Under the pieces are notes generated by a model that worked only from the letters and a program-made list of their open reading frames with translations, made no database searches and was not told the DNA's origin. The translations under genes and the position numbers were made by a program. Shown here piece by piece: positions 13,005 to 64,000 of a stretch of DNA of 64,000 nucleotides (position 1 is its first letter; every line of letters starts with the position of its first letter). Source of the stretch: Tribonema minus (lineage: Eukaryota; Sar; Xanthophyceae; Tribonematales; Tribonemataceae); contig JAFCMP010000035.1 of assembly GCA_017506865.1 (NCBI GenBank), positions 1,178,001 to 1,242,000 on the forward strand. The letters run 5' to 3'.

Positions 13005-13110
13005 GTGGTTGTCGTTGCGACACTTTCAGACTGTCATACGACATGTAGATTCCTTACAGCTAGATGCCAATCATCTGGGCTTTTTCGCGCCCTGAGCGAG
13101 AATCAATGAA
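11869..13110 (+). mobile_element. RLE-type non-LTR retrotransposon, 5'-truncated (copy A)
   Basis: The longest copy of the family here. It encodes the polyprotein C-terminus and a 3' UTR ending in GAGAATCAATGAAA. AAGTACA occurs at 11862-11868 and 13111-13117, a 7-bp candidate target duplication. The reverse transcriptase itself has been lost by 5' truncation, which is normal for target-primed reverse transcription. The 5' boundary rests on the short duplication and is less certain than the 3' end. Confidence 0.75.
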
Positions 13111-22803: not shown

Positions 22804-23010
22804 TGATGCAACAACCAGTCTCCGTACTACACTTCAGCAAGTGCAGGGAACAATGCAGAGAAGACACCCACACACAACACAGCTGACCGAACTGTGCTAT
22901 GTGTATTCTGGGGCTGCTGCTCTTGTCTGAGCCAAACAAACAACAACGAACAACTCGTAACTGCCAACCGTAACAGTTACAGGTGACACCCCAACATCCA
23001 GTGTCACCAC
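22804..23010 (-). repeat. E1 3' LTR
   Basis: 207 bp identical to 35394-35600 except at 22809 (C versus A) and 22979 (A versus C). On the plus strand it begins TGATG and ends CACCAC(A). It is preceded on the element side by a purine-rich tract. Confidence 0.95.
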
Positions 23011-23025
23011 AGTCACCCCCCCTAG
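23011..23025 (-). promoter_or_regulatory. E1 polypurine tract
   Basis: On the minus strand, AGGGGGGTGACT directly precedes the 3' LTR. This is the expected position and composition of the plus-strand primer. Confidence 0.65.
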
Positions 23026-23369
23026 ATTGGAAAGGGTACTGCAAGGGGGACCCACTACACATATGCAACATGACTCGCAAGCCAATGCTACACATTGCAA
23101 TGACTCCTGTGCAAACGCAGTCAATATGCAAAGGCATGCCGCACAAGACGCCTCTCACACGCCGGGGTCTCTACCAAGCACATGACCGTGTGACTACACA
23201 TGCAATGATTCCAGCTGGGCTTGTGTGCCAACTAGGAACCAAGAACCATTCGATGCATCTGGGCGCGTGTTGTACAAGCTAGGGTCCAGTACTAGGGTCT
23301 GATACACCCCTTCAACAATCCAGAACACCCTATGAGCTATCTGTGTATGCCTTGTCTTCCCCTTTGAGA

Positions 23370-26300: not shown

Positions 26301-29300
26301 CTTACACCCTATGTGCAGCTTGCTGGGGGCTAGCTTCATCCCATGATGCTCTAGGCGCTGAAGAAGGGCTTTGAGGTCGTCGAGGTGCTGAGCCGTGGAT
26401 GTAGAGTGCACAATGACGTCGTCAATGTAGGGCTGGACGCGCTCTAGGCCGGAAAGCACCATCTGCATGAGGCGCGTAAAGTGCCCTGGCGCCCCCGCTG
26501 CCCCCTGTGGGCACCGTAGCCACTCATACAAGCCAAACGACGTGACCATGGCAGTGAGGGGGATGCTGTCTGCATCTATGGCACTAGTGAAGTACCCACT
26601 GGTGATGTCCATGGTGGTGAAGACCTTTGAGCCCCCCAAACTATTGAGAAGATCCTCTATGTTGGGAATGGGGATCTGGGGGATTTTGGTCTGGGCGTTC
26701 AGCTTCTTGTAGTTGACGGTGATTTGGGCAGTGCCATCAGGCTTGAGCACTGCCACCACTGGGGATGCCCACTCAGAGTTGGAAGGGCGGATGATGCCAG
26801 CAGCCAGCAGCTTGTCGATTTCGACCTTGACCAGAGCCGTCATTGCAGGAGAGTACCTATATGGACGGTCATGGTGCGGTGTGCTGCCCTCTTTGAGATC
26901 AAAGCGGAAGGGCAATGTGTTACAATGCCCTATGTCCCACTTGTCTTTTGAGAACATTTTGCTGCTATACTGAGCGAGCAGCAGGCACAAACACGCCACC
27001 TGATCAACGTCCCATCCCTGCAGGTCAACGCGCACTGCCAGCATGTAGTCTGGCAAGTGCTTGCGTGCCTCAGCCAAAGCAGCATTAACCTTAGGGTCTT
27101 TGTGAACGTAAGACCCCAAACTTAAGCCGCCGCTGTCAGGAATGTGTACTTTTGCGCTCCCACTAGGCTCAAAGTCAACGGCCTCACCGAGGTGTTGGTG
27201 CAGCGCCTCTCGCACGGCTGCTGCGCCCTTCGCAATAGTCGCGTCAGCGCTGCTGCCGGCGTCACCCTCCGGCTCCGCCTCGCAGCGCATAATGTCAGTG
27301 TGCAGGTCCAGCACAAAGATGTGCTCCTCCCTCCCAGCGCGTGCTGGCGCCGCCGCGGCGGCGCCTGCCGCGTGCGCGGGCTGCGCCGCTGTATCGCTTG
27401 TCACTGATGCTGCCGCTGCAGCATTGCTCCCACTAGCCGCTGCCGCATGCGCGGCGTCCTCAGACGCCGCTGCCGCTGCAGAGCGCTGCTGCGCCGCTGC
27501 CGCCTGTGCGGAGCTCGCCCACTCCACTGCGGTGGCCATGTGCACTGCGACTGGTTCAGCGCCAGCATGCGCCGCTGCTGCCGCAGTGCTCTGTTGTGTT
27601 GCCACTCCATGCGCGGCGCTGGTCGGCGCCGCGGCAGAATCAGCGTATGCCGCGACAGGCGCGGCGCCCGTAGGCGCCGCTGCCACCGCAGCGCTCCGCT
27701 GCGCGTCCGCCGCTTGGGCGGCGCTCGTCGGCGCCACCGAAGAGGCTGCGCGCGCTGCAGCTGGCGCGGCGCCCACAGGCGCTGCTGCTGCTGCAGCACT
27801 CCCTGGTGTCACTGGTGCGCGCGAGGCGCGCGCCGACGCAGCCGCTACACCAGCAGCACGCGCCGCGACTGGCGCGGCGCCCTCGGGCGCCGCTGCCGTC
27901 GCAGCGCTCCGTCGCGCAACTGTTGCCTGCGCGACCTCCTTATGAGCCGCCCCTGAGGCAGCTTGGGCCGCAGCGCGCACGGTGCCAGCCGGCACCGATG
28001 CCGCCGCAGCGTCCCGGCGTGCAGCCGCTGCCTGCGCAGCAGCAGCAGTGTCGCCGTGTACGGGGCCAGAAGACGTCTCTTTTGTCGCAGAGCTCCGCGG
28101 CGCGGCCGCTGACTGCGCGGCACCCTGCGGCGCCGCGGCAGCAGCCCGCGGCGCACTGCGCGCAATGCCTGTATATGCTGCCGCCGCAGCAGCGCTCGCC
28201 GGCGTCGCTGCAGCAGCGCTCACCGGCGCTGCTGCAGCAGCGCTCGCCGGCGCCGCCGTCGCAGCGCTCGCCGGCGCCGCCGCAGCTGCAGCAGCCTGTG
28301 CTTGAGGGGCGCGCGCTCCGCGCGCCACACGTCTGCGCGCCTCCTGTGCAAGAGCCACTCCATACTTGCCGAAAGCGTGGTGGGTGCCAGAATTGATGAG
28401 GGTTTGTACTGGATCTGGCAGCGACGATGCCGCCGCCTGGTCCACGACATCATGCAGCAATCCGCTCTGCAGCAGGATCCCCCCCAGTAGGTCCGCCATT
28501 TGCGGGCACACCGCGTTCGCCAGCATCTGTGAGTAGGCAGTGACGTCAGGCGGCTCTGGAGCATCCCACTTGTACGAGGTGGGAAAGCTGTGAATGGCGC
28601 GCAGCGCATGCCAGGGTAGGTACTCCGCGCGCGCGTGCTCAGCCGGGTCCTGCATAGCATCCTGTGGTCGCACGTCGATGTTAGGCTGCAGGTTTCGGCG
28701 GTACGTGCAGCCGCGAATGGTCGGCGCCGGGCCGTCCATAGAGTGCACCTGTTTGGCCTTAGTGTTGCGGCCAACTGTTGCAAAGAAGTCGCGCCGCTGA
28801 CCGTTGGAGTCAAGCACGTCGCTGGTGACGTTGCGCACGGTGTCGTACTCAGCGTGCTGCTTGGCATATGTCAGCAACTGCACTGCCTGGTGCATAGACG
28901 CCTGCATGCGCGCGCTGTCGTGCTCGCCAGTGCCAGGTCGCCCCAGCAGCCAAAACACACGCGTGCGCGTCTGAGCAATGCGGCTGTCTGCACCAGTGAT
29001 CACTAGCTCCTGCTGCACCGTGAAGCCGCCGTGTGCTGCGCAGCGCAGAAACTCCGCCAGCTCCGGTGCCGCCCCAAGGCCCGGAACATTTTCAATCTGC
29101 AGTAGTCGGCAGGTCTCTGCGCCCATTGCTACCTCCAGCATGTAGTAGAGGTGCTCCATGCCCAAAGCCGTCTCCCCCTCCCCTGCTGTTGAGAATTTCT
29201 GGCAGGGGGGGCCCCCTAATAAGACCTCGGCGCGCAGCCGCCACATATCTGCAATGAGCTCTGCGCGCGTAGATGGGTCCGCCATATCCCGGCGGCGGAC

Positions 29301-32030: not shown

Positions 32031-32033
32031 CTA
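31998..32033 (-). promoter_or_regulatory. E1 gag-pol stop-codon readthrough signal (predicted)
   Basis: On the minus strand: TAG (32033-32031), an 8-nt spacer GGGTGCGA, then CCCCCAGCC (32022-32014), a 7-nt loop (32013-32007) and GGCTGGGGG (32006-31998). The arms pair perfectly over 9 bp. Gag and pol lie in the same frame on either side of the TAG. Gammaretroviruses use a UAG followed after 8 nt by a structured element (a pseudoknot) for the same purpose. The function here is inferred from position and structure. Confidence 0.7.
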
Positions 32034-35000
32034 GGTGCCCCTGTTGCCACTGTTGCCACGGCCGCCGCGGCCGTAGCCGCCCCCGTAGCGGTTGTAGCTC
32101 CTGCCACCGCCAGCGCCACTTCCGCTTCCACCATCTGCAGAATCTCTGCCGCGCGGGCCCTGAAGCGAGGAGGCATCGCCGCTGTTGAAAGCACGTACGC
32201 GCGACCGGAGTGCCTGCCACGTCGTCTGGTTCGTAGGCGCAAATTTCTGCACCTGTGGGCGTTGTACTGCTGCCGCTGCCCAACCTGCGTGGTTGAATGC
32301 CTCCGAGCATGCGCTGAACAGGTGATCACCGCCGCAGTTGTAGCACCCCAGCGCGTTACCCCGCGCCCGCTCCGAGCTGGTGAATTTCTCCTCCACCACT
32401 GCCAACAGAGCCATAGAGTTCAGTGTCACTGATTCACGCTGCTGCCTGCGCCTCCTGTCGCCTAGCGCGTAATCATTGGTGCCACCACCACTACTGCCGC
32501 CACTTAGACCGCTGGCGCCTCCGCCTGAGCCCGTGCTGAGTGTCTCCGGGTATATAGAGTAGCCGGCGGGTGCGCCGCTGGCGAGATGCTGCACGGAGCG
32601 GTGCGCCTTGAGCGCCTCAAGCGCCTGGTGCATGCTGTAGCGTGTGTGGCGGTTGATGATGTCCCGAATGTTGTCCTGCGCGGCAATCGTTGGGTATTGC
32701 CTGTTCACCAAGCCCGTAAGAGCTTGGACGCGTAGGTTGTCGTTTGTCGGGTCGATCATTGCGGACAGGTTGCACTTGGACTGCATGTAGTTGAGCGCAT
32801 CACGGAATGGCGTGTCTTTGCGCACCGCCACGCGTAACAGGTCCGCCGCAATGCGAGAAGGCTGACCTTGCTGGAAGTGCTCCCCCAGTTGTTCCATGAG
32901 CCACTTGTAGAGCTGCAGGTCTCTCGTGCCAGCCGCCACCCCCCGTGCGCCCTCCACGATCCATTGTTCTGCCTGCTCGCGCACCGTTGCTGCTGCAGGG
33001 TGCGAGCCCCGTAAGGCGACGCACAGGCCCATGGTGAAGGGGGCCAGCCATTCGCAACCAAAGTCGTCCTCCCTGTTGAGCACCTGCGGCAGCTTGGCCT
33101 TCTGGCGCGCGAGTGAGCAGGCGTGGCGCAGGTGCACCAGCAGTTGACTGCCAATCTGCCACACGACATACTCGTCGCTGCGGTTTACAGGCGCGAGGCC
33201 ATGGAACAGCTTGTCCAAGTCTGCCGGTACACGGCGCAGAGCCCAGCCATCACGATCAAAGTTGTCGTCGCGGCTGCCTCCACTGCCGCCACCACCAGCG
33301 TCACCTGCACCACCGCCGCCTCCACTGCCGCCGCCGCTGCCGCCGCCAGAGGCTGCGCCAACCGGTACACTGCCCCGGGGCGATCTAGAGGGGCCGCTGC
33401 CGCCTCCGCCGCCGCCGCCGCCGCGCCATCGCCGCCGCCGCCGCCTCCGGCGCCGCCGCTGCCTGCAGCGCCGCCGCTGCTGCCGGCGCCGCCGCTGCTG
33501 CCGGCGCCGCCGCTGCTGCCGGCGCTGCGGGCTGCGGCGCCAAAGTCGCTGCTGCCGCTGTCCGCGAGGGTGGCAGCAGGCAAGGCAGTTGGCGCAGCAG
33601 TCGTCGATGGCCTCTGCTGGGTAGCCGCTGCTTGCATAGTACCTGGGGCGGCCGCCATTGCGGCCGTTGGCGCCGCCGATAGGCCAGCGTTGGCCCTCCG
33701 TAGTTGCTGAGCCTCTGCCGTAGCTGCATCGCGCTGCATAGTAAGTGTCATCAGAGCCTGATGGAAGTAGCTCTGATCTGCTGCATGCTGCAGCTGCAGC
33801 TGAGCGTCGGGCTTCATAGTAGGCTGTGCTGTGGGTGCCAAAGTCGCATCCGACGAGTCAGCAGCGTAGCTGCTTGTTACACGTTCCAGTTGTTGACGCA
33901 GTGGCCGGGCGTCAGCGCCGCCAGCAGGAATGGTCGGCGCCGCCGATCCGCTCGGCGACACGTGCTTTCCAGGCCCAGCCAATGGTGCAGCGTATGGCGC
34001 AATAGGCGGTCGTGCCACGCTGCTGCTGCGGATCGTACTAAGCGGCACTGCCGGGCCGCTGGTGCTGAAGTCTGCTACTGACACGCTGTCCTCGGGAGCC
34101 ACACTGGGTGCTGCGCTGCCAAAGTTGCTACCCACAGAGTGGAAGGATGTCTCATACGCCGTTGTGGTACGACGCTGCGCATCAAGCATCGCAACTTTAG
34201 TGCCCACCTCAAGTAGCTGGCGCCGCATGTCCCCCACGCCCTCTGCAGCGTTGTTGTGCTGCCGCAGCAGATCCTCTTGCCGCGCGATCACCTCCTCCAT
34301 GCGCTTTTGCCCCTGCGCAACCTCCGCTGCCACTCCTGACAGGCGCTCACCCATGTGGATCAGCCGCAACTCCAGTCGCAACCCTCTCACCGACCTCCGC
34401 GATGCTCCCCGCGATGGCCGCCATGTCTCCTTGTATGACAGGAATCACATCCTGTACCAGCGCGTCCATGTCGCGCTGTGATGCTGCACCGCCTGCGATG
34501 GTGGGGCCACTCCCCATCTGCGCCAGTGCACTAGCGTGCTCCGCCAGCTGCATCTGGTGCCTGCGCAGCGATGTGTCGATACCGGGCAAGTTGTGCGTAA
34601 TTACCATGCACAGATCCTGCCCCATGAGAGAGGTGGTGTTGGCCACCCCTGCGAGCCCCCCTTTGAGGCTGGTTACCTCGGACTGCAGGAACTGCAACTC
34701 CATGTTGAGCTGCAAGTCCAAGTCCTCCTCGGCAGTCATATGCCCCACCGTCGCAGCTTCCTTTCGCTGCTCCTCCTGCTCCATTTCACGCTCCCTAGGA
34801 GAGGGCGCCGCGTCCATTGCGGGCCCAGATCCCATCGGGCGGATGACCAGGTGCTTCGGGTTGTCGGCGAGGGCGCCAAGAACTCCTGTGGGTCCAGAAG
34901 GCTTGCCGCCAGACTCGTGCCCCCAGTCGGCAGCAGCACTGTCTGCCCACTCCACCAAAGCGTGGTCAGCGACAGATACTGGACCTGAAGTGGTGTCGCT

Positions 35001-35333
35001 GCTCCCGATGGTGGACAAGTGGTGCGGAGCCGCCGCAGCTGCAGCGTCAGTTGCAGGCCCTGGCACAGGCTCTGTTCTCACTGCGCTGCCGCCTGCTAGC
35101 TCGTTCGCACTCTGGGCTGGTACGACTGCGCCACCAGCAGCGCCTCCAGCCTTGATCGCAACAGCATCGGCCAGTGATGCTGCGCGTCCCACGGACAAAC
35201 TCCGTGACCTCTGCACACGCCTCGGCTCCGGGTTGTGGCCATAGGGCAGCTTGGCCAACACAACTCCAGAGCTCCACGTTGCGCGAGAGTTTACTCCTGA
35301 TGCAGCACGCGCCGAGTCCTGCTCGTGCGCCAT
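32031..35333 (-). CDS. E1 gag region (one protein apparently split by two single-base shifts)
   Basis: ATG at 35331-35333, 60 nt after the 5' LTR; it ends at the TAG 32031-32033. The first part (to 34347) has no recognised domain. The middle part (33185-34390, next frame) contains a coiled coil (RMEEVIARQEDLLRQHNN). The last part (back in the first frame) has a gag capsid-like helical region and one zinc knuckle CYNCGGDHLFSAC (C-x2-C-x3-H-x4-C), followed by an RGG-like Gly/Arg tail. Neither the middle nor the last frame has an ATG at its start. Frame use suggests one extra base in the GGG at about 34382-34384 and one missing base in the GGC run near 33421-33427. They cancel, so the ends stay in frame with pol. 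They could be mutations, sequencing errors or programmed shifts. Confidence 0.75.
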
Positions 35334-35375
35334 CGTACCGCTATCGCCTGGTGGATTTGGTCAAAGGTCGTCTTT

Positions 35376-35391
35376 TCGTACTCGGGAACCA
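35376..35391 (-). promoter_or_regulatory. E1 primer-binding site candidate
   Basis: Two bases inside the 5' LTR the element reads TGGTTCCCGAGTACG. The leading TGG would pair with a tRNA CCA end. I cannot name the tRNA. Confidence 0.5.
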
Positions 35392-35393
35392 AC

Positions 35394-35600
35394 TGATGAA
35401 ACAACCAGTCTCCGTACTACACTTCAGCAAGTGCAGGGAACAATGCAGAGAAGACACCCACACACAACACAGCTGACCGAACTGTGCTATGTGTATTCTG
35501 GGGCTGCTGCTCTTGTCTGAGCCAAACAAACAACAACGAACAACTCGTAACTGCCAACCGTAACAGTTCCAGGTGACACCCCAACATCCAGTGTCACCAC
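35394..35600 (-). repeat. E1 5' LTR
   Basis: Mate of 22804-23010, with two mismatches. The gag ATG lies 60 nt downstream. Its promoter elements were not identified. Confidence 0.95.
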
Positions 35601-35605
35601 ATGTT
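35601..35605. repeat. Target-site duplication of E1, right
   Basis: ATGTT, matching 22799-22803. Confidence 0.85.
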
Positions 35606-54160: not shown

Positions 54161-54669
54161 GTATGTACTTACATATATAAACAGCTGTGGGGTAGGCTGT
54201 TTTAAGCCCCAAAACACAGAGTGTGTGATGGCCAGACCAGTTGTAGGTCAGCCCACACTCAGCTGTAGGTGGAAAACAGCAGGCCACTTGTTGACTCCAG
54301 GTTGGCCAGGCAGGGCAGGGTTGCAAAGTCTGACACTGTCGTGTTGCAGGTTAAGAGTGATTGCATTGCAAGGGAGCAGAGGAGAGCTGCTGCAAGCAGT
54401 TGGCAACTTAGAGAGCCAGTGTGGGCACACCCAGGGCCAGAGTGGTGGGCCTGATTGGGAGACAACTAACCAATCATAAGTGGCAGCTACACTACACCAA
54501 GGGTGCCAAAGTAGTGGGCCTCGTGGTGGGCAACTGGCCAACGGTAGATGGCAGTTACGGAAGTTGAAAGGTGAAGTTGTGGGGCGGATAAAGGGGCAGA
54601 TTCCCACATACCCCCCTTGATGTACCAGTGATAACACTAGTGTGAACGTGGTGCATCACAAGAATATGC
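54161..54669. other. MRD1 intron start and probable 3' LTR of E2
   Basis: Begins with the donor of MRD1 exon 5. Somewhere in this ~510 bp the left (3') LTR of E2 should end. Its partner lies outside the window, so the border cannot be drawn by comparison. Confidence 0.5.
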
Positions 54670-54683
54670 TCCCCCCTCCCTTA
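54670..54683 (-). promoter_or_regulatory. E2 polypurine tract candidate
   Basis: AAGGGAGGGGGGAG on the minus strand, about 285 nt after the integrase stop, in the position expected directly before the 3' LTR. Confidence 0.55.
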
Positions 54684-54718
54684 TAGTTACTCAAACGGTG
54701 TCACAATAGCACCACATT

Positions 54719-54836
54719 GCAAAGCGGCCAATAGGGCGGCGATGCTGCTGACACCTAACAGCAAAAGCTGCATGTACGCAAAGCGGCCAATCGGGCGGCG
54801 ATGCTGCTAACATTGAACAGCCAAGCTGTATGAAAC
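54719..54836 (-). repeat. Two 59-bp tandem repeats in the E2 3' region
   Basis: GCAAAGCGGCCAAT(A/C)GGGCG... at 54719-54777 and 54778-54836, between the integrase stop and the polypurine tract. Confidence 0.85.
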
Positions 54837-54967
54837 GCGCGCGCGCGCGGCGCGCGACACACTACATTGCACATGGAGTGCAAAACAACAGACATGCGGC
54901 GGAGTGCGGCATGTACTTAGCGCGTGCGCGGCGACGCCCCCCTCCAACGCCTCTTGGAGTTCTTGGC

Positions 54968-57900
54968 TCAGGCGCGGGTGCCGAGGTTGATGGGCTCGGG
55001 AAGCGCGAAACGCGTGTTGAACGCGGTGACCATGTCGTGAAGGCCACGGTTGATGAGGTGACGACGGCTGAGCCAGTCAGTGCCGCTGAGGTCGCCGAAG
55101 TAGCGGACTTGGTAGACTTGGTTGCCGTCGGCGGCACGTCCACGCCCAGGTTTGCGCGCCACGATGGCCTCGACGGCGACAGACGGGTCCAACGTACGGG
55201 CGACGTCAGCGTCGGCGCCGTCGGTGCGGCCAGGCGCGCGTGGCGCGTGATTCGTGAGTAGGGGGCGGCCCATGTAGACAAAGTCGCTCTCCGTGAGCGG
55301 CGATGGGCGCTCGCCGTCAACGTAGCGGCGGATGTGCGCAATGTGGAAGCGCGTGCCGGTGGTAGCGTTGGCAGACATGCGTACTTCAACACATACGGGG
55401 TTGATGACGCGTAGCACCTCAAAAGGGCCTGCCCAGTCCGACTGAAGCTTGGGTGCAACGGCGATCTTGGGGTCCGGTACGGCGGCCACCCAGACGCGGT
55501 CGCCAACTGAGTAGGCAGGTATGTCGAGCGCGGCGGCGTCAGCGTCAAGGCGGCGCTGTAGGGCCTCGCTGTTGCGGCGCAGCAGCTCGTATGCCTCCTG
55601 CAGTGTCGACTGAAGTTCGTGGCGGTAGTCGCTGGAAGTAGGCGGCGCGGGCTCGCCCAAAATGATGTCGATGGGGAGACGCGGGTGAAAGCCCATGTGG
55701 AGGAAGAACGGCGACTCAAAGACCGAGCGGCGGTACGCGGTGTTGGCGGCGAGGGAGTGCGCGAACAGTAGCCGGTCCCAATGCTGAGGGTGACGCAGGG
55801 CGTGTACGCGCATCATGTTGCCGAGTACGTCGTTGCCGCGCTCCACGATGGCGTTGGCCTGGGGGCGGTACGGCGTGGTGGTGGTCTGGTCGATGCCGAG
55901 CAGGTCGCAAAGCTCGCGAATGACGTCATTGACGAACTCCGTACCTTGGTCCGAGTGCAGGTACCGCGGCACGCCAAAGTAGGCCACCCAGTAGTCCACG
56001 ATGCGCTGAGCGATGTGGCGGGGCGCCTTGCCTGGTATGCCGGTGTTGACGCGGAAGCGCGTGCAGGGGTCCACCGGTGCGCACACGTATAGGCTGCCAT
56101 CAGCGGACGGCTGAAAGGGGCCCATAAGGTCGATGTGGAGGCCTTGGCGCGGCTCCAGTGTAGTGTTGAGCGTGCCGGAGGGGAGTTGCGCCTTGCGGTG
56201 GGGGGTCTTGGTGCGCTGACACGTAATGCACGTGTCGCACCAGCGCAATACATCGGCGCGGTGCGTGGGCCAGTAGTACTTGGCGCGAACGCGGCGCAGC
56301 GTGACTTCCGCGCCCATGTGGCCGCCGGAGACGTGGTCGTCGTGGGTGGCGGTGAGCACTATGGAGACCAAAACCTGAGGCACAAAGAGAGTAACGCGCT
56401 CCCTGTCGTTGCTGTACACTGGTGACTGCTCCATGTCCACGCGGAATAATACGCCATCGTCACTGAGACGGTAGTTGGCGAGTTCGGCGGCGGCAGAAGT
56501 GGGAGTGTCACCGGCGGCAGATGACTGAGCAGTAGAGTCGCCGGCGAGCTGTCGCAGTATGGGGCCGGCGGCGGCGTCAGCGGCTTGAAGTTCGCGAAGG
56601 CGCTCTAACGTAAGGCCAGGCAGGCTGGAGTAGCTTGCGGGCGCGCTGGAGTCGCCGTCGCCTTCCGCTGAGGCGGTGAAGTCCGCGTCGTTGATGAAGT
56701 CCGCGCCGCCAGCGTCTGCGACGCTAGAGGCGGCAGCGGACGGCATGGGCGCGCTGCTGCTGTCCGATGGGGCTGGCGAAGAGGCAGGGTCGGCGGCGGC
56801 AGCGGGCTCAGAAGCGCTGGCGGAGCGGCCGACGCCATCGGCGCCAGCGGTGCCAAGGACGGCCGGCTGCGTGCTAACTTCAACGTCGGGGCTGGCGCCG
56901 GCGGGCGAAGCGGCGGCGCTGACGGCTGCGTCGGTGGTGCCAAGGGCGGCTGACTGCACGCCAACTTCAACATCGGCGCTAGCGCCGGCGGAAGAAGTGG
57001 CGGCGCTGGCAGTTGCATCAGCCGCGGCGGAAGTGGTAGCGGTGGCAGCGGGCTTGGCGGCGCTGCGAAGAACCCTAGTGTTGGGCACCAGAGGGTTTGG
57101 AGCGATGACAAGCGCGGCGCTGTTGAGCGCTGCGCGGTCAAACTGAACAGCTCCTGACGCCATGTGGGCCTTGGCGCGAGTCGGCGCGCAAATGAGGCGG
57201 CCAGGAATGATCGTGGAGACGGGCAGTAAGTCCAGCGCTCCTACCATGGCCAGGCAGCTAGAGAGGGTCTTCATGTGAATGGGCAGGATGGCGTTGGCGG
57301 CCAGGCGTCCCTCCAAAGCGCGGGGGAGGGGCAGTGGCGGCGAAATAGGCTCCATGCCCTGAATGCGCAGCATGTCGCTGAAGCTCAAAGTATGAGCCTC
57401 AGAAGGTGCGCAGGCATCGCCGGCGCGCGGCACGTAGTTGGCCGGCAGGCGCTGAGCGATGCGCGCTAGAAGAGTGGGCGCGGGCGCGTGAGCATCCAAG
57501 ATGCAAGCGCCGGCGGGGTAGCGGGACATGTAGACGTAGGCGTCCGGCTGGCTGGGCAGGACGTCGTGGACGGTGAGGCGGCGCGGCTGCTGGTGGCAAT
57601 CGCGAATGCACTGGTCCAGTAGCATGAGGCGCGACCCAGAGCGCTCACTGCGTTGCAGTGACACAACGTAGACGCGGCGGCGTACAGTGGCGGCGCCAAG
57701 AGCCGCTGCGTCTAACGTGTACATGCCGATGTCGTAGCCGCCGCTGAGAAGCATGTCGCGGTACGCGCGGAAGGTGGCACTGCTGAGAAAAGGGGGCACG
57801 TTCTCCAAGATGCCGAGCACGGGCCGGCACCGTAGCTGCAGGCGGCCGTAGTCGAGTGTGGAGATGGCGAGTGGTCCTTCGATGCGCGGGCCGGCGGCGG

Positions 57901-58117
57901 AGTAGGGCTGGCAGTTGCTGCCATGTACCAAGGCGTAGACAGAGCGTACGCGTAGGAAGCGGTAAACCTCCTCCGAGGCAAGGTCGGCGCAGATGGTGGG
58001 CACCGTGGGGAAGCGCTGCGAGTACACATCTAGTGTGCGTTGGTCGAGCTCCACGGCGATGATGGGGCGCATGTAGCCAGCGGCGCCCTCTGTGGCGCCG
58101 CCGATGCCACAGCCCAA
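54968..58117 (-). CDS. E2 second pol frame: C5-cytosine methyltransferase, integrase, chromodomain-like tail
   Basis: At least 1049 residues, ending in TGA; the frame is also open upstream of 58117 (TTG there, no ATG), overlapping the end of the first pol frame in the -1 register. Methyltransferase: motif I ATFADLGCGIGGATEG, IV HGSNCQPYS with the catalytic Cys but SNC instead of PPC, VI LENVPPF, VIII VRRRVYVVS, X NAILPIHMKTLSSCL. A Ser/Ala-rich linker follows, with a duplicated ~24-residue segment (near 56870-57020). Integrase: HDDHVSGGHMG ... CDTCITC zinc finger (about 56220-56360), then HIDLMGPF, HSDQGTEF and NAIVERGNDV for the D, D, E triad, and a GPF module (SDWAGPFEVL, near 55425). The C-terminus (AVEAIVARK, YQVRYFGDLSGTDWLSRRHL) resembles a degenerate chromodomain. 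The methyltransferase lies between RNase H and integrase, unlike in E1. Confidence 0.9.
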   Translation of the reverse strand: MGCGIGGATEGAAGYMRPIIAVELDQRTLDVYSQRFPTVPTICADLASEEVYRFLRVRSVYALVHGSNCQPYSAAGPRIEGPLAISTLDYGRLQLRCRPVLGILENVPPFLSSATFRAYRDMLLSGGYDIGMYTLDAAALGAATVRRRVYVVSLQRSERSGSRLMLLDQCIRDCHQQPRRLTVHDVLPSQPDAYVYMSRYPAGACILDAHAPAPTLLARIAQRLPANYVPRAGDACAPSEAHTLSFSDMLRIQGMEPISPPLPLPRALEGRLAANAILPIHMKTLSSCLAMVGALDLLPVSTIIPGRLICAPTRAKAHMASGAVQFDRAALNSAALVIAPNPLVPNTRVLRSAAKPAATATTSAAADATASAATSSAGASADVEVGVQSAALGTTDAAVSAAASPAGASPDVEVSTQPAVLGTAGADGVGRSASASEPAAAADPASSPAPSDSSSAPMPSAAASSVADAGGADFINDADFTASAEGDGDSSAPASYSSLPGLTLERLRELQAADAAAGPILRQLAGDSTAQSSAAGDTPTSAAAELANYRLSDDGVLFRVDMEQSPVYSNDRERVTLFVPQVLVSIVLTATHDDHVSGGHMGAEVTLRRVRAKYYWPTHRADVLRWCDTCITCQRTKTPHRKAQLPSGTLNTTLEPRQGLHIDLMGPFQPSADGSLYVCAPVDPCTRFRVNTGIPGKAPRHIAQRIVDYWVAYFGVPRYLHSDQGTEFVNDVIRELCDLLGIDQTTTTPYRPQANAIVERGNDVLGNMMRVHALRHPQHWDRLLFAHSLAANTAYRRSVFESPFFLHMGFHPRLPIDIILGEPAPPTSSDYRHELQSTLQEAYELLRRNSEALQRRLDADAAALDIPAYSVGDRVWVAAVPDPKIAVAPKLQSDWAGPFEVLRVINPVCVEVRMSANATTGTRFHIAHIRRYVDGERPSPLTESDFVYMGRPLLTNHAPRAPGRTDGADADVARTLDPSVAVEAIVARKPGRGRAADGNQVYQVRYFGDLSGTDWLSRRHLINRGLHDMVTAFNTRFALPEPINLGTRA

Positions 58118-61100
58118 GTCGGCAAAGGTGGCTGGCTGAAAATGCTGCGCGATGCGCCTGGCCGGCGCAGCGGCAGTTGAAGCGGTAAAGCGGCAGCGGG
58201 CACGTCGTACAGCTCCTGTAGCTGATCCATGCCAATGATGCGGCTGAAACCGTCGGCAGGCTGATGCTCGCCCTTGAGGTAGCGCACGGTGTAGTCGTAC
58301 TCTTCAAGCTGTAAGGCCCAGCGCGTGAGCACTGCGCTGCTGGCCATGTTGCGGTTGAGGAAGAGTAGAGGCTGGCAGTCAGTCCACACTGTGAACGACT
58401 CGTAGCGTAAGTAACCGCGGAAGAACTCCACGGCCTTGACGATGGCCATGAGCTCCTTGACGGTGGCGCCGTAGTTGGCCTCCGCGGGGGATAGCACCTT
58501 GCTGAAGAAAGAGATGACGCGCTCGTAGGGCTGTAGGGCGCCGGCGCGATCGGGACCAGCTTCTGCATCCGGCGGGCACTGTGTGAGCACTGCGCCTACG
58601 GCGTAGGCGGACGCGTCGGTGTAGAGCTGGTATGCCATCTGAGGGTCAGCGTATGTGAGGACGGGCTCCGATAGCAGGGCGGCGCGCAGCTGAGCCATGC
58701 AACGGTCGTGGCGCTCACACCACTGGCGGAATGGATCAGGTCCCGCCGTCTTGCGTAAGAGGTGGTTGAGCGGTGCCACGAGCTCTCCGTGACGGGCAAT
58801 GTGCTTGCTGTAGAACGCGACCATGCCGATGAAGCTGCGCAGCTCCTTGACGGTGCGCGGCAAGGGCACTGCAGAGATGATCTCCACATTGCGAGTGAGC
58901 GGCTTGACGCCTGAAGCAGAAACTTCAAACCCGACAAACTTGATTGCAGTTGTACCAAAAGAGCACTTGCTCACCTTCCACACCAGGCCGTAGTAGCGGG
59001 TGCGGAGTAGGATGGCATAAATGAGTGCGCGGTACTGCTGGTAGTTGGCGGCGTGTGGGCTCATGTCGTCGACGTACTTGGTGGCGCCGGCGGGGCGCAG
59101 GTCGCCAAAGCACATGTCGGCGACGCGGTTGAAGGCGGTGGGAGCGACCTTGCTGCCAAAGCCGAGGCGTGTAGGCTGAATGATGCCAAGCTGCGGTATC
59201 TCCAGCGCGTACAGGTGGCGGCACTCGGGGTCGATGACCAAGTTGTTGAACGCCCCAAGCGCGTCCATGCTGCCAAAGATGCGGCTGCCGCGGAAGTCGC
59301 CCATGAGCTGCGGTATGTGGACAACGGGGCCGTGATCGTCGGCGGTGTCCTTGTTGATGCGGCGGTAGTCGCCGCAGATGCGCCACTTGCTGGTGTGCGG
59401 CTTGGGGGTGACGAGGGGCTGGCTCAGCTGGTCAGTGCGCGCGCAGCGCTCGTGAAGGCCAGCTGCAAGCTGCTGCTCGCCCCAAGTGAGCAGTATGGCA
59501 AGGGCCACGGGGCTGAAGCGGCGTGTGGGTTCACGAAAGGGCTTGTAGGAAGCCTTCATGACCGGCCGGAAGTAGCCGAAGGAAGCAGAGACGTTGCCGA
59601 CGTCCGTGTCTTCTTGTCCGAAGCAGTCCTCGAACTGTTGGAGCAGGGTGACGAAGTCTTGGCGCTGCTCCGCCGTGAATGGGCTGTCGGTTGGGATGAG
59701 CGACGCGAAGTCCACCGGCGGCTTGCCGGTCATGTCGCGAGGCTCAGCAGGGGGGCCAAATAGGCGCGACGGCTCCAGTGGATCTGCGAGCAGGGGATGT
59801 ACTGGCAGATCGGCGTCGCTGAGTAGGCTGGCCATGACGGGTGCGACGTCCTCGGTAGTGTCTGAGTCGTCGTCGTCAGGCGCGTCGGTGGCGGTGAGCT
59901 GATCGCCGGTGACGCTGTTGGTCTCGTAGCTGTCGCTGCTGCTGCTGTTGGCGTGGGCGTCCGTAGTTGGTGAGCCGGGCGCCATCAGGAACATGCCGAC
60001 GTGGTCGCCCACGGGTGAGCCAAGAGGGCTGTACACCGGTGATATGGGGCTGTAGACTGGCGGCGGAAGTCGCAGCCCCCGTGCCCGGGCCACTGCTGTG
60101 TTGCGAGCGGCAAAGACAGCAATGGCGGCGCGCTGAACCTCCCGGTGCGCGCGTGGGTCGGAAGTAGGGGGCCCTCCGGCAGCGTCTGCGTCATGGTGAA
60201 AGGGGCGTGCGGCAAGTTGTGCGGCCGCGTAAGCTGCGGAAGTGCGCCGAACGTCGGGGTCGGTGCGAGGATCCAAGGGGTGGCCGTGGCGCTGGTTGAG
60301 CGCTGCTGCTCCATTGGCGGGCGGCGCTATGTCCATGGCGACGGGCTGATTGCGCTGTGGTGACGGCAGTGGCCCGATGCGCTCCACTTGCCCGCGCGCT
60401 GGGTGCGGCACGCGGTGGCCACGCTGAGCGGCAGGCTGTGGAGGGGGCGAGCGGTGCTGCGGGGAGTGGCGCGCTGGGCTGCGGCGGTGCTGCGGGGAGC
60501 GGCGCGCTGAGCTGCGGCGGTGGTCGTGCCGAAGAGCTCGCTGATCGCGGCTGCGCTCGTGAGTGCTGCGGGGACGGTTGTGCTGACGAACTGGCTGATC
60601 ACGGCTGCGCTCGCGAGCGCTGCTGCGGCGAGGGCTGTCGTGAGCTGGGGCGACGTAGGCCTGGCGCGCGTGGTCGGGCGGCGGCGGTGAGCCGCGGCGC
60701 GGTGTGCGGCCCGCGCCAGAGTCCTGAACTGCCTGAGCGTGGTGCGCGCGGCGGCGAGGTGGAGCGTCGCTGAAGTCCAGCATGTCGACGTCGTCGGCGC
60801 CGTGTTGAGCTGGGTCTGCGAAGTAGCGCGGGCTGCCGGCGGCGATCACGTTGGCGCTGGCCATAGGACGGCGGGAGTCGGCAGGTGCGCGCGACGGGCG
60901 CCCAAGCCGAGGCGCGGGTAGAGGTATGCCCCCATAGTCCCCGGGCTCGTCGGCGCTGGCGTCACGTAGTAGCTTGAAGGCTGCCACGAGGTACCCCGGG
61001 GGCAGAGCGAAGCGCTCACGCTGGCTGGACAACGCCCGGAGTTGAACTTGCACGTAGCCAGCCTCGTCCATGTCGTGGGGCTCCTGCGCGTTGAGTAGCT

Positions 61101-63762
61101 GAAAACCACTTGCCAGTGGCGAGACGTGGTGCTCGCCGCCCAAGCATGGGTGCTGCAGCAGCACAAGGACGCGGCTGCGCTGGCGCGGGGGATCGTCGGC
61201 GCGCAGGGTGAGGTGGATGACGCCGCCGCGTAGAGAGCCCCGCCCAATCTTGACGGCGTGCATGAGCGTGAGTGCGCCAGTGCGGGCTACGTGGGGCTCC
61301 TCCGGCGTGTAGGAGGGCAGTATGGCGTCTGTGACGCCGCCAGAGCCGTGCCGAACTGCCGAGAACGGCTGGTGGCCGCCGACGGCGTTGAGTTCGACAT
61401 CGAACGGGCGCCACTCCATGCGGCGTCTGTGGAGGTGTAGGCTGCGGTTCTCGCCCACTCCGTAGATGGCGAACTCGCGGCGGGGGTCGTCGGGCGTGGC
61501 CAGTACGGGCCGTACAGTGTGCAAATAACCCGTGTACGGGTTAATGCTCATACGGTTGCGCACGAAGAAGGAGTTGCCCAGTACCAGCGATGCGGGCAGG
61601 TCGTCCACCATGATGCAATGCGTTAGGTAGCTGACCTGACGAAGTGGCTCTGCGGGTGCGTTGGCGGCGCGCGGCAGACCAAGGTGAGCATCGCGCCCCT
61701 CGAAAGTGATGGGGAGCATCAAATGGCGACGGTTGTCCATGACGTCGCTGCCGGCGTGGAAGATGGGCAGGTGCTGGCGCGTGATGTCCTCTGGCATGAG
61801 GAACACGCGCGGACGATCGCCGCCGGGGAGTAGGCTGAAGTAGCTCTCTGCCTCTCGCGTGCGGATGTACACGTTGCCGGCGCCGGTGTCCACGACGGCG
61901 GCTGAAAGGTCCAATGCGTCGGCTGCGCTGCCGATGCTGACCTTCACGGTGGCCAAAGTTGCTCCGGCGTCGTAGCCGAACATCTTGTACCAGTCGTCGG
62001 TGCGCCAGTGCGATGGCATGCCGACAGGGATGACGCAAGGGTCTGTGAATGCTGTGGCGCGTAGGTATGCGGGGGCGCCCAGGTTGACAGAGCCGTGATG
62101 AGCTGGCCGCGGGCGCTGCTGTGCTGCGCCAGGCGTGCCAGAGTTGTTGGGGCCGCGGCTAGGGAGCTGGCGGCGTGCGTCTTGGGGCCGTTCTCCGCTG
62201 CTGGGGTTGAGCGTGGGTGGACGCGGCGGCGGCGCCTGCTGGCGCTGCTGGCTGCGGTCTCGAGAAGGCGTGAGTGCGGAGGCGGCACCTGCAGGGGGAG
62301 CAAAACGCAGCGCAGAGTTGCCACCTTGGGGGGTGGGAGCACTCTGCGGACGGGAATTGTCGCCGTGACGGTTGCCGCGGTAGGGACGGCGCCCGCTGCC
62401 GTTGCGGTTGCCGTTGCCCTGGTTGTTGTTGCCGTAGTTGAGCGATGTGTCGTCATCAACGTAGTCGGCGGAGGGAGAGCTGTTGAAGGGAGATGGCGAC
62501 CCATGCTGAGGTGGCATGAAGTTGGCGCTGCTGGCGCCGTTGGTCGCGGTGGAATTCTCTTTGTTGCGCAAAACGATGGTGCGTTCAATGCGCTGAAGAG
62601 ACGCCACCATCTCCTCCTCGTTGAAGCGAGAATGCGTCTGCAGGCGCATCTGCTGGCGCAGTCCCGGAAGTAGGCCCCCCTCGAGGATGGTGAGGAACAG
62701 GCACTCCTGAAGCTCAGGTAGAGGGGCGGCGGAGGCGCCGCTGCTGCCGTCAACGGAGACGGCGCGAGTGCGGCGAACCTGGCCGTATAGGGTAGACAGT
62801 TGCTGAAGCGTGCGGCGGCCGCGTAGAATGTAGGCCTTGCTGGTTTCCTTGGCCCCCTGCTTGAGGTCGACCACGGCGCGGCAGCTGTCCTCGAACGCTG
62901 CCGGGGGGGCGAAGTGCTCGAGCAGCACCTGGGCGATGCCGGTGAAGGAAGTTGGCCAGGTGCCGGCCTGGCGGAGAGAGGTAGCAAGCGCATGTGCCTC
63001 GCCTCTCAAACTGAGGAAGGCATAGTGGCAGATGTCGTGGGGCGCGGTGACTTTCTGCGTCTCCATATAGGAGATGAAGCGCTCTACCCATTCCGTGACG
63101 TCTTGTTCCGTACGTACTCCTTGAAGTAGCTTGGCGCCATGGTAGTCGGGGAGGTTCTTGACGGCGTCTGGCTTGAGAGTCTTTTCTACTGCGCCACGAC
63201 CTGTGAGGGGGATGCCGATGCTGCGCAACGAGGCAAGCAGCTTGGCATGGTCACGGGCGGCGCGCTCCTCGGGGGTGCGATGGCGCCGCGGGCGCAGGTC
63301 GATGCCTGCGGCGGCGGCGGCGGCGGCGACTTCAGCGGCGGTGGCGGCCGCGGTCGGGTCCAGTGTAGAGGGCGCGCCCGCGAAGGAGGGTGCGGCGTCT
63401 GCTGGAGGTCCGGTGGCGGCGGCGGCGGCGGCGGCGGCGATGGCGGCGGCGGCGCGGCCGGAAGCTGCTGCGGCTGGCGGCGGCGGCGGGCCAGGAAAAG
63501 GAGGAAGATTGGGCGGAAAGCCAGGGCCAAGGAGGCGTGGTGGCACCGCGCGGCGCGGCGACGGAGCGGCAGGCGGGCCTGACGTGTCTTCTTCATCGCT
63601 GCTGCTGTCTTCGTTGTTGGGGTCGCGGTAGACGAGGGTTGGGTCGTCGAACGGGTTCGACGGGCCCCCGGCTGCAGCTCGAGCGGCCGCTCGAGACGCG
63701 GCGACTTCGGCAGGTGTAGCCCCAGCTCCACCTCCGAACATGCGTCCGAATGCATTAAACAT
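58030..63762 (-). CDS. E2 gag-protease-RT-RNase H polyprotein
   Basis: 1910 residues from ATG at 63760-63762 to TAG at 58030-58032. The N-terminal part is Ala/Pro-rich; then comes a gag-like helical region (HYAFLSLRGEAHALATSLRQ, AYILRGRRTLQQLSTLYG at about residues 250-340). An Asn/Gly/Arg-rich basic stretch follows instead of a CCHC knuckle. Aspartic protease is near residue 624 (AAVVDTGAGNVYIR). A long Arg/Pro/Ser-rich linker runs to ~1200. Reverse transcriptase has the catalytic KYVDDMSPHA near 1565 and RNase H has LYTDASAYAVGAV near 1718. The frame is intact over 5.7 kb. Expression of the methyltransferase and integrase requires a -1 shift in the overlap near 58030-58240; I see no canonical slippery heptamer there. 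Confidence 0.9.
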   Translation of the reverse strand: MFNAFGRMFGGGAGATPAEVAASRAAARAAAGGPSNPFDDPTLVYRDPNNEDSSSDEEDTSGPPAAPSPRRAVPPRLLGPGFPPNLPPFPGPPPPPAAAASGRAAAAIAAAAAAAATGPPADAAPSFAGAPSTLDPTAAATAAEVAAAAAAAGIDLRPRRHRTPEERAARDHAKLLASLRSIGIPLTGRGAVEKTLKPDAVKNLPDYHGAKLLQGVRTEQDVTEWVERFISYMETQKVTAPHDICHYAFLSLRGEAHALATSLRQAGTWPTSFTGIAQVLLEHFAPPAAFEDSCRAVVDLKQGAKETSKAYILRGRRTLQQLSTLYGQVRRTRAVSVDGSSGASAAPLPELQECLFLTILEGGLLPGLRQQMRLQTHSRFNEEEMVASLQRIERTIVLRNKENSTATNGASSANFMPPQHGSPSPFNSSPSADYVDDDTSLNYGNNNQGNGNRNGSGRRPYRGNRHGDNSRPQSAPTPQGGNSALRFAPPAGAASALTPSRDRSQQRQQAPPPRPPTLNPSSGERPQDARRQLPSRGPNNSGTPGAAQQRPRPAHHGSVNLGAPAYLRATAFTDPCVIPVGMPSHWRTDDWYKMFGYDAGATLATVKVSIGSAADALDLSAAVVDTGAGNVYIRTREAESYFSLLPGGDRPRVFLMPEDITRQHLPIFHAGSDVMDNRRHLMLPITFEGRDAHLGLPRAANAPAEPLRQVSYLTHCIMVDDLPASLVLGNSFFVRNRMSINPYTGYLHTVRPVLATPDDPRREFAIYGVGENRSLHLHRRRMEWRPFDVELNAVGGHQPFSAVRHGSGGVTDAILPSYTPEEPHVARTGALTLMHAVKIGRGSLRGGVIHLTLRADDPPRQRSRVLVLLQHPCLGGEHHVSPLASGFQLLNAQEPHDMDEAGYVQVQLRALSSQRERFALPPGYLVAAFKLLRDASADEPGDYGGIPLPAPRLGRPSRAPADSRRPMASANVIAAGSPRYFADPAQHGADDVDMLDFSDAPPRRRAHHAQAVQDSGAGRTPRRGSPPPPDHARQAYVAPAHDSPRRSSARERSRDQPVRQHNRPRSTHERSRDQRALRHDHRRSSARRSPQHRRSPARHSPQHRSPPPQPAAQRGHRVPHPARGQVERIGPLPSPQRNQPVAMDIAPPANGAAALNQRHGHPLDPRTDPDVRRTSAAYAAAQLAARPFHHDADAAGGPPTSDPRAHREVQRAAIAVFAARNTAVARARGLRLPPPVYSPISPVYSPLGSPVGDHVGMFLMAPGSPTTDAHANSSSSDSYETNSVTGDQLTATDAPDDDDSDTTEDVAPVMASLLSDADLPVHPLLADPLEPSRLFGPPAEPRDMTGKPPVDFASLIPTDSPFTAEQRQDFVTLLQQFEDCFGQEDTDVGNVSASFGYFRPVMKASYKPFREPTRRFSPVALAILLTWGEQQLAAGLHERCARTDQLSQPLVTPKPHTSKWRICGDYRRINKDTADDHGPVVHIPQLMGDFRGSRIFGSMDALGAFNNLVIDPECRHLYALEIPQLGIIQPTRLGFGSKVAPTAFNRVADMCFGDLRPAGATKYVDDMSPHAANYQQYRALIYAILLRTRYYGLVWKVSKCSFGTTAIKFVGFEVSASGVKPLTRNVEIISAVPLPRTVKELRSFIGMVAFYSKHIARHGELVAPLNHLLRKTAGPDPFRQWCERHDRCMAQLRAALLSEPVLTYADPQMAYQLYTDASAYAVGAVLTQCPPDAEAGPDRAGALQPYERVISFFSKVLSPAEANYGATVKELMAIVKAVEFFRGYLRYESFTVWTDCQPLLFLNRNMASSAVLTRWALQLEEYDYTVRYLKGEHQPADGFSRIIGMDQLQELYDVPAAALPLQLPLRRPGASRSIFSQPPLPTWAVASAAPQRAPLATCAPSSPWSSTNAH

Positions 63763-64000
63763 GCTGCCAGGCTAGGTATCAGCAGACTAGGAAAGTGCTG
63801 CTGTGGCTGGTTGCGGACTGAATTGCTACTGCCACGCGAGGCAAAGTAGCTTTAGAGCTCTACTTGCTGAGAATGCAGCGCACTTAAGAATGCAGCCACA
63901 AGCAAGGAGTCAGCTTCAGGCTTACGTTCCTGTTGCTGTAGATGATGTACTTTCTTCCCCCCCTTGATGATACCTAGGGATGGAAAGTAGTGCCGAGATG
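63763..64000 (-). other. E2 5' leader
   Basis: Non-coding sequence upstream of the E2 gag ATG. No match to the left flank of the element longer than about 16 bp was found, so the 5' LTR is probably outside the window. Confidence 0.45.

What the first reader, a model, noticed from the sequence alone, without database searches (positions are those of the whole stretch)
57240..58240. E2: a second, different methyltransferase in another Gypsy lineage, at another position
E2 carries its methyltransferase between RNase H and integrase, while E1 carries it between protease and RT. Motif I (GCGIGG versus GAGG), motif IV (SNCQ versus PPCQ) and motif VIII differ, and the host polymerases belong to different lineages. 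Two elements with differently placed enzymes within 64 kb point to repeated independent capture, and so to a selective advantage in this genome.
Basis: partly seen in the sequence, partly recalled or inferred. Interest (0 to 1): 0.87.

Follow-up and report, generated by a model that had tools for sequence, protein, structure and literature searches.

The report
Retrotransposon carrying a DNA cytosine methyltransferase
A young copy-and-paste genetic element in this genome carries its own DNA-methylating enzyme inside its replication protein, and it is one of several hundred such loci here, so this genome is a good place to ask why mobile DNA would methylate DNA instead of only being silenced by it.

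Summary
E2 is a 10.5-kb Ty3/Gypsy element (minus strand, window 54186 to 703 bases past the window end) with 423-bp LTRs 99.05% identical. A C5-cytosine methyltransferase (MTase) sits between RNase H and integrase; the catalytic motifs are present, with Ser-Asn where Pro-Pro usually precedes the catalytic Cys. E1 carries a different MTase between protease and RT.

E2's enzyme is not a private capture: it forms one clade (100/99) with MTases of at least four other long-ORF families of the genome; in the two whose frames I could read, the MTase lies before the protease. E1's enzyme is deeply different, but whether it shares a retroelement ancestor with that clade is unresolved (trees join them at 96-98%; profile scores are mixed). 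The genome holds at least 284 MTase loci, and three polyprotein positions were seen.

Retrotransposon DNMTs are known (de Mendoza 2018), including a Gypsy with DNMT3. This enzyme is not DNMT3, and eight library searches showed no record of this arrangement. Purifying selection and a confident fold favour a working enzyme; methylation of the element's own cDNA is the likeliest role, but inferred.

The parts
54186..64000 (-). E2, Ty3/Gypsy LTR element; its 5' end lies 703 bases beyond the window (G000:C35:1242703)
   Evidence: LTR pair by blastn; TGTGGG...CCCACA ends and 4-bp target duplication GCTG read at both flanks
54186..54608 (-). 3' LTR, 423 bp, 99.05% identical to the 5' LTR; CpG observed/expected 0.17
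55319..55504 (-). Tf2-1-like SH3 domain after the integrase core (below Pfam's cut-off)
   Evidence: PF24626, 24.9 bits, cut-off 30
55862..56383 (-). integrase: H2C2 zinc-binding domain and rve core
   Evidence: PF17921 3e-17, PF00665 7.9e-14
56414..57190 (-). Ala/Ser/Pro-rich linker between MTase and integrase
   Evidence: translation; no Pfam match
57191..58141 (-). C5-cytosine DNA methyltransferase domain, 317 aa (motif I FADLGCGIGG, motif IV GSNCQPYS, motif VI ENV, motif VIII RRRVYVV, motif X ANAILP; motif names recalled)
   Evidence: PF00145; alignment; AlphaFold2 model pLDDT 88.2, pTM 0.89; Foldseek matches to MET1, M.HaeIII, M.HhaI
58030..63771 (-). E2 ORF1 (stop to stop): gag region, protease, RT, RNase H
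   Evidence: Pfam (no Pfam match for gag or protease)
58297..58647 (-). RNase H domain
   Evidence: PF17917 1.6e-25
58921..59406 (-). reverse transcriptase core
   Evidence: PF00078 1.1e-15
61876..61890 (-). protease active-site motif DTGAG
   Evidence: motif position; motif recalled, no Pfam match
54968..58303 (-). E2 ORF2 (stop to stop): MTase, linker, integrase; a frame break separates it from ORF1 in the window copy
28431..29453 (-). E1 MTase (comparison), between protease and RT
   Evidence: PF00145 6e-16
22804..35601 (-). E1 element, LTRs of 208 bp at 22804-23011 and 35394-35601, 99.04% identical

Best explanation
E2 is a recently inserted Ty3/Gypsy LTR retrotransposon whose pol polyprotein carries a complete C5-cytosine MTase fused directly behind RNase H and in front of integrase. 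The enzyme belongs to a retroelement clade ('A': E2, its sister C112, F3, F4, F5, F6) that is spread over several long-ORF families of this genome and over two polyprotein positions; E1 and its relatives carry a second, deeply different enzyme ('B') at a third position. The enzyme is made as part of Gag-Pol, travels in the particle with RT and integrase, and methylates cytosines of the new cDNA (or of the fresh insertion) before or at integration. SHOWN: element structure, youth, domain order, predicted complete fold and catalytic residues, clade membership, purifying selection between families, copy number (lower bound). INFERRED: co-packaging, activity, DNA rather than RNA as substrate, and the benefit (masking the cDNA from foreign-DNA or unmethylated-DNA surveillance, or setting the chromatin state of the new copy).
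For: Structure: LTRs, TSD and domain order. Clade A: 100/99 in a 56-row tree and 99/96 in a 24-row tree; full-length profile alignment of E2 with F3/F4 and F5/F6 (scores 211 and 195 over about 300 columns, against at most 129 over 163 columns with bacterial groups); an EGxxA-type box behind motif IV in 6 of 6 clade-A rows against 1 of 115 DCMs (E1 has the letters EGETA at another offset). Co-inheritance of MTase with the element: sister C112 has the same RNase H-MTase junction, with 45% MTase and 57% RT identity. A metagenome protein, P0003, has RNase H joined to an 86%-identical MTase at the same junction. Of 11 E2-lineage RT loci, 10 have an MTase beside them. Selection: Ka/Ks 0.62/1.49 for the MTase and 0.44/1.36 for RT, E2 v. 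C112; 0.33/1.73 for F3 v. F4 MTase. Fold: pLDDT 88.2, Foldseek E 1.4e-15 to MET1 and about 1e-14 to DCMs. Census: at least 284 loci. CG activity of some retrotransposon DNMTs was shown by others in yeast (PMC5890265, text parts 1-4 of 7 read).
Against: No activity, expression or methylation data. The element body is not CpG-depleted (o/e 1.09), so heavy lasting self-methylation in CpG leaves no trace there; only the LTRs are depleted (0.17-0.28 in nine E2 copies, C112 0.22, E1 0.41; window background n = 127, minimum 0.33, median 0.78), and no LTR of an MTase-free element was at hand as control. The published Gypsy enzyme (KnitGypsy-Dnmt3) gave no methylation in the yeast assay (its authors call this inconclusive). 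The window copy itself is broken between RNase H and MTase, and C257 and C57 inside the MTase. Six E2-type integrase places (C15, C501, C122, C225, C112:960113, C401:113675) have no MTase listed beside them; one is at a contig end (C225) and C401:113675 covers just the part of integrase that C401:73302 lacks, so some may be displaced or cut pieces. The RT fragment at C135 has none either. Within E2 copies the Ka/Ks contrast is weak (7 silent and 12 replacement codons in MTase, eight copies; 9 and 22 in RT, seven copies). Ks values between families are near saturation.
Confidence: 0.55

Rival explanations
1. Independent capture: E1 and E2 each took up a different cytosine MTase from different donors.
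For: Family by family, E1's profile scores higher with ten of 14 bacterial groups (155, 136, 126...) than with E2, F3/F4 or F5/F6 (84, 73, 73), and E2's scores 129 with a bacterial group against 89 with E1. Different insertion points, different RT lineages, different primer-binding motifs. E1-E2 MTase identity 22%.
Against: Two trees place E1 next to the E2/F clade (96/93; 98/99); AU tests reject joining E1 to two of three bacterial rows or groups tried (p 0.017, 0.034; third 0.061); against the six clade-A rows as one profile E1 scores 140 over 293 columns; E1 has EGETA behind motif IV, close to clade A's EGxxA. Long branches meet in the large tree. E2 itself is not a private capture. (I lowered this from 0.5 to 0.45 when I took and the EGETA letters into account.)
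Confidence: 0.45
2. One capture, then movement: clade-A MTases entered retroelements once and were exchanged between Gypsy lineages and positions (before protease in F3/F5, behind RNase H in E2).
For: E2-F3 MTase identity (29-30%) is as high as RT identity (31%), although within lineages the MTase diverges faster than RT (E2-C112 45/57, E1-C66 65/83, E1-C550 37/65, E1-C540 33/51). E2's integrase is nearer to a group without a listed MTase (34%, 146 bits) than to F6 (28%, 103 bits). No full-length relative of clade A outside retroelements was found among the capped candidates scored (7,994 in each).
Against: Identity near 20-30% is close to the floor. RT sequences of F3-F6 could not be fetched, so no RT tree exists. 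RT and integrase rank E2's neighbours differently. Separate captures from one unsampled donor family give the same picture.
Confidence: 0.4
3. The enzyme acts on RNA, for example the element's own RNA or its tRNA primer, not on DNA.
For: The best solved-structure matches of the clade-A profile are Dnmt2 tRNA methyltransferases (59.8 and 58.3 bits). CpG is not depleted in the element body.
Against: The lead over a bacterial DNA enzyme is 4 bits, and it is absent for E2 alone, whose best match is a bacterial DCM. Foldseek ranks MET1 and DCMs first.
Confidence: 0.15
4. Passenger: a captured domain without function in the element, on its way to decay.
For: Window copy frame break; MTase interrupted in two of the nine other E2 copies (C257, C57); Ser-Asn before the catalytic Cys; weak Ka/Ks contrast among E2 copies.
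Against: Catalytic Cys, ENV and two Arg of motif VIII kept in 7 of 7 retroelement MTases aligned. SNC conserved in three metagenome relatives that cover it (P0003, P0004, P0094). Ka/Ks well below 1 between families. Long open frames at many loci.
Confidence: 0.07

Closest known systems
KnitGypsy-Dnmt3 (Klebsormidium nitens; de Mendoza et al. 2018, PMC5890265, text parts 1-4 of 7 read)
   Same: Gypsy-type element with a C5-cytosine MTase in the pol ORF; catalytic residues kept; purifying selection
   Different: DNMT3 class there; E2's clade matches no DNMT3 chain among its 57 matches at E <= 10, although DNMT3A chains are in the library. Repeats there are DIRS-like; E2 has ordinary LTRs. Position of the MTase not stated in the text I read.
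SymbioDIRS-Dnmt3 and SymbioLINE-Dnmt (Symbiodinium; same paper)
   Same: Hundreds of retroelement MTase copies in one genome; two architectures of one element class carry the MTase with different domain order
   Different: DIRS/LINE classes; DNMT3 or dinoflagellate-specific enzyme; here LTR elements with integrase
Bacterial-type DCM (M.HhaI, M.HaeIII) and plant MET1
   Same: Predicted fold and motif order
   Different: Free-standing or host maintenance enzymes; E2's C-terminal half aligns well only with other clade-A enzymes
Orchid Ty3/Gypsy elements with an AlkB m6A demethylase (PMC9289625, abstract start and passages seen)
   Same: Ty3/Gypsy lineage that gained a nucleic-acid-modifying enzyme
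   Different: Separate ORF, demethylase, RNA substrate

Membership tests
Ty3/Gypsy LTR retrotransposon | PR-RT-RNase H-integrase order in pol | tested here: met
   Pfam matches for RT, RNase H, integrase in order; protease by motif only
Ty3/Gypsy LTR retrotransposon | Paired LTRs with TG...CA ends, target duplication, primer-binding site | tested here: met
   423-bp LTRs, TSD GCTG, TGGAGGAGTCC three bases behind the 5' LTR; which tRNA it pairs with was not tested
Ty3/Gypsy LTR retrotransposon | RT groups with Ty3/Gypsy RTs in a tree with reference elements | not tested
   no named reference RTs at hand; domain order alone used
C5-cytosine MTase (PF00145) | Profile match and catalytic motifs I, IV (Cys), VI (ENV), VIII | tested here: met
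   Pro before Cys replaced by Asn
C5-cytosine MTase (PF00145) | Transfers a methyl group to cytosine C5 | not testable with these tools
   no assay
Retrotransposon DNMT3 (KnitGypsy/SymbioDIRS) | MTase of the DNMT3 class | tested here: not met
   no DNMT3 chain among 57 matches at E <= 10; DNMT3A present in the library. Indirect: a bacterial DCM used as control does not reach DNMT3 either, but a DNMT3-type enzyme would
E2's MTase and E1's MTase as sisters | One clade to the exclusion of F3-F6 | tested here: not met
   E2 with F3-F6 100/99; p-AU 0.042, borderline
One retroelement MTase clade (A+B) | E1 and clade A share an ancestor not shared with DCMs or DNMTs | tested here: inconclusive
   trees for (long-branch warning in 57); profile scores mixed (for, against); eukaryotic DNMT1/3/5 missing from the trees

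The most novel reading that the evidence does not exclude
Clade A (perhaps with E1's enzyme) is a retroelement-specific MTase family that behaves as an exchangeable module: it was captured once, and has since moved between Gypsy lineages and been placed at different points of the polyprotein, where selection keeps it. That would make cytosine methylation a recurrent part of the replication cycle of LTR elements in this genome rather than an accident of one family.
Probability: 0.35. Interest if true: 0.78.

Novelty: new variant of a known kind. Interest (0 to 1): 0.6.

Why it matters
Host genomes use cytosine methylation to silence mobile DNA, so elements that bring their own methyltransferase turn the usual picture round. 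The published cases I saw are DNMT3-type or dinoflagellate-specific. A genome with at least 284 such loci, two enzyme groups and three polyprotein positions gives replicate cases in one host. One can compare young copies with and without the MTase, ask whether their cDNA or LTRs are methylated, and test whether the domain is exchanged between element lineages.

Tried and rejected
Considered and dropped: (1) E2 as an artefact of misread frames: dropped after seven other copies showed RT and MTase in one frame. (2) A 780-base segment (window 60964-61743) missing from three copies as a spliced intron: no GT...AG at its edges. (3) DNMT3 identity: no match. (4) A viral source: no confirmed match in viral contigs for E2, F3 or E1 MTase, a search by short exact patterns. 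(5) CpG depletion of the element body as a sign of self-methylation: not seen; only the LTRs are depleted. (6) A 155-bp repeat pair at 4506 and 12962 as a control LTR pair: inspecting the open frames between them (no family search) gave no sign of an element, so it serves only as a repeat with normal CpG. (7) Host naming: the pattern search found TTAGGG-type repeats, which does not name the organism. (8) A protein search with E2 ORF2 found nothing at E <= 0.001 among 7,991 scored candidates.

Of two control trees, the one without E1 was left at its quick version.
Full report
OBSERVATION. The window is G000:C35:1178001-1242000 of an unnamed 158-Mb assembly in 554 contigs. On its minus strand E2 reads gag region - protease - RT - RNase H (ORF 63771-58030) and then, in another frame, MTase - linker - integrase (ORF 58303-54968). 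Pfam gives RVT_1, RT_RNaseH, DNA_methylase (55.9 bits, cut-off 22), Integrase_H2C2 and rve. The LTRs are 423 bp, at window 54186-54608 and at L001:281-703 (C35:1242281-1242703), 99.05% identical, with TGTGGG...CCCACA ends, a GCTG target duplication and a TGGAGGAGTCC primer-binding motif. E2 is thus a young insertion, complete from LTR to LTR, of 10.5 kb.

THE FRAME BREAK. In the window copy RNase H and MTase lie in different frames. In 7 of 9 other E2 copies fetched they lie in one frame (C401, C334, C224, C168, C509, C257, C57), always 320 residues between the motifs YVDDMSPH and LGCGIG. Of the other two, C96 has RT and MTase in different open frames, and C8 shows no RT upstream. In C257 and C57 the MTase itself is matched in two pieces, so it is interrupted. 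The MTase follows the RNase H tail directly. The junction is the same in the sister element C112 and in a metagenome protein, P0003, which joins RNase H to an MTase 86% identical to E2's over the part it covers.

THE ENZYME. Its best sequence match in the PDB is a bacterial DCM (3g7u, 5.9e-8). The clade-A profile matches Dnmt2 (59.8 bits), DCM 3g7u (55.6), M.HhaI (49.8) and DNMT1/MET1 (33), and no DNMT3 among its 57 matches. DNMT3A chains are in that library: a broad DCM profile reaches them at 43 bits, although a single DCM did not. An AlphaFold2 model on a 50-row alignment has pLDDT 88.2 and pTM 0.89; Foldseek ranks MET1, 3g7u, M.HaeIII and M.HhaI among the first five (E 1e-15 to 1e-14, query TM 0.65-0.70, rmsd 5.7-7.2). 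The catalytic Cys, ENV and two Arg of motif VIII are invariant in the seven retroelement MTases aligned. E2 has Ser-Asn-Cys where Pro-Pro-Cys is nearly invariant in the 50-row alignment; this is conserved in three metagenome relatives that cover it (P0003, P0004, P0094), so it is a lineage trait and not decay.

CENSUS. Six-frame searches of the genome gave 123 rows with E2's MTase, 122 with E1's and 127 with F6's. Merged within 3 kb they make 284 loci: 196 found by the E2 or F6 query (group A) and 89 by the E1 query (group B), with one pair of neighbouring rows from both groups. The groups here go by query, not by tree; only the best candidates are scored, so the counts are lower bounds, and some loci are fragments. 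The E2 lineage has 11 loci: window, nine near-copies (93-99%) and C112 (45%), plus a short 60% fragment at C65. Many loci lie in open frames of 2,000-3,500 aa. In group A, F3 (L018, L019) and F5 (L045) carry the MTase before the protease, by reading the frame. F4 and F6 have the MTase 1.8-1.9 kb before RT, as F3 has, which fits the same layout but was not read. Public protein P0121 is F3-like, with a similar stretch behind the MTase. E1 has protease - MTase - RT.

HOW THE ENZYMES ARE RELATED. In a tree of 56 rows (8 retroelement MTases, 45 of 100 eligible DCMs found, and three partial solved chains), E2, C112, F3, F4, F5 and F6 are one clade (100/99). Inside it E2+C112 (99/92) is sister to F3-F6 (99/96). 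A 24-row tree with P0121 agrees (99/96). An EGxxA-type box behind motif IV is found in 6 of 6 clade-A rows and 1 of 115 DCMs. Profile comparison aligns E2/C112 with F3/F4 and F5/F6 over about 300 columns (scores 211, 195); the best bacterial group reaches 129 over 163 columns and E1 is tenth of 17 with 89. E1 is the open point. For kinship with clade A: trees place it beside clade A (96/93 with a long-branch warning; 98/99 without one); AU tests reject E1 with two of three bacterial rows or groups (0.017, 0.034; third 0.061); against the six clade-A rows as one profile it scores 140 over 293 columns; and it has EGETA behind motif IV, at another offset. Against: family by family it is nearer to ten of 14 bacterial groups than to any clade-A group (group sizes differ); with clade A removed it has no supported neighbour; and E1 with E2 alone is rejected (p 0.042). 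The rows lack eukaryotic DNMT1/3/5 and viral enzymes, so a deep common origin of A and B is neither shown nor excluded.

ELEMENT LINEAGES. E2's RT is 57% identical to C112's, and 29-31% to F3, F4, F6 and E1 alike. E1's RT is 82-83% and 61-66% identical to two groups of relatives, and 37-38% to a family with 24 places (C15, C7, C462, C292 and others); no MTase or 67 lies within 10 kb of any of the 24, but those lists are capped. E2's integrase is 48% identical to C112's, 34% to members of that same family (146 bits) and 28% to F6's (103 bits). MTases diverge faster than RTs inside lineages (E2-C112 45/57; E1-C66 65/83; E1-C550 37/65; E1-C540 33/51), but E2 and F3 show 29-30% against 31%. That is what exchange of the MTase between lineages would leave, but the values are near the floor and the RTs of F3-F6 could not be fetched.

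SELECTION AND METHYLATION SIGNS. Ka/Ks for E2 v. C112 is 0.62/1.49 in the MTase and 0.44/1.36 in RT; for F3 v. F4 MTase it is 0.33/1.73 (Ks near saturation). Among eight E2 copies the MTase has 7 silent and 12 replacement codons, and among seven copies RT has 9 and 22: too few for a strong claim. The LTR of E2 is the most CpG-poor stretch of the window in 400-base steps (5 seen, 29.6 expected). Eight other E2 LTRs read 0.17-0.28, C112's LTR 0.22 and E1's 0.41, against a background minimum of 0.33 and median of 0.78 in 127 windows; the body of E2 is not depleted (1.09). This fits either past methylation of the promoter or selection to avoid CpG there; no MTase-free LTR was at hand.

MECHANISM. 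The best reading is that Gag-Pol brings the MTase into the particle with RT and integrase, so that the new cDNA or fresh insertion is methylated. De Mendoza et al. proposed cDNA methylation for SymbioDIRS and showed CG activity of those enzymes in yeast, while their Gypsy enzyme gave no activity in that assay, which they call inconclusive (PMC5890265; text parts 1-4 of 7 read). A 2025 survey again lists DNMT3 in retrotransposons (PMC12344493, section 5 read and passages). Another proposal is antiviral defence (PMC6338049, passages). For E2 the activity, substrate and benefit are inferred.

NOVELTY. Retrotransposon-borne cytosine MTases, one Gypsy case included, are in print. Eight library searches (listings and starts of abstracts; others showed 15 of 253, 12 of 32 and 12 of 89) listed no paper on a non-DNMT3 MTase between RNase H and integrase, nor on several Gypsy families of one genome carrying MTases at three positions. 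I therefore rate it a new variant of a known kind.

Noticed in passing
window 60964-61743: A segment of about 780 bases between protease and RT of E2 is absent from the copies at C96, C168 and C257, a shared deletion subfamily; no intron ends.
   Followed up: partly
window 38488-41571 (+): Long open frames with a reverse transcriptase that by eye looks LINE-like and not Gypsy, between E1 and E2; no family search was made.
   Followed up: no
G000, all contigs: 12,313 matches to three-unit TTAGGG-type telomere repeats; the places listed (all on contig C1) lie scattered inside the contig, often as short arrays; the reversed control pattern has none.
   Followed up: no
window 54186-54608; L001:281-703: E2 LTRs are strongly CpG-poor (o/e 0.17) while the leader and body are not (1.07, 1.09); C112 and E1 LTRs are CpG-poor too.
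   Followed up: partly
L044, L045 (C168): The C168 copy of E2 stops matching about window 57010, in the MTase-integrase linker; an F5-type MTase-protease frame follows (L045:3401-5785), and E2-type integrase appears about 8 kb beyond it (C168:1075061), so one MTase element may have inserted into another.
   Followed up: partly
G000 contigs under about 20 kb: Many long MTase frames lie near contig ends or on short contigs (C471, C435, C404, C442, C92); assembly breaks in repeats or clustered insertion, not separated.
   Followed up: no
window 4506-4660 and 12962-13116: A 155-bp direct repeat, 97% identical, 8.4 kb apart, with no recognisable element between the copies.
   Followed up: partly
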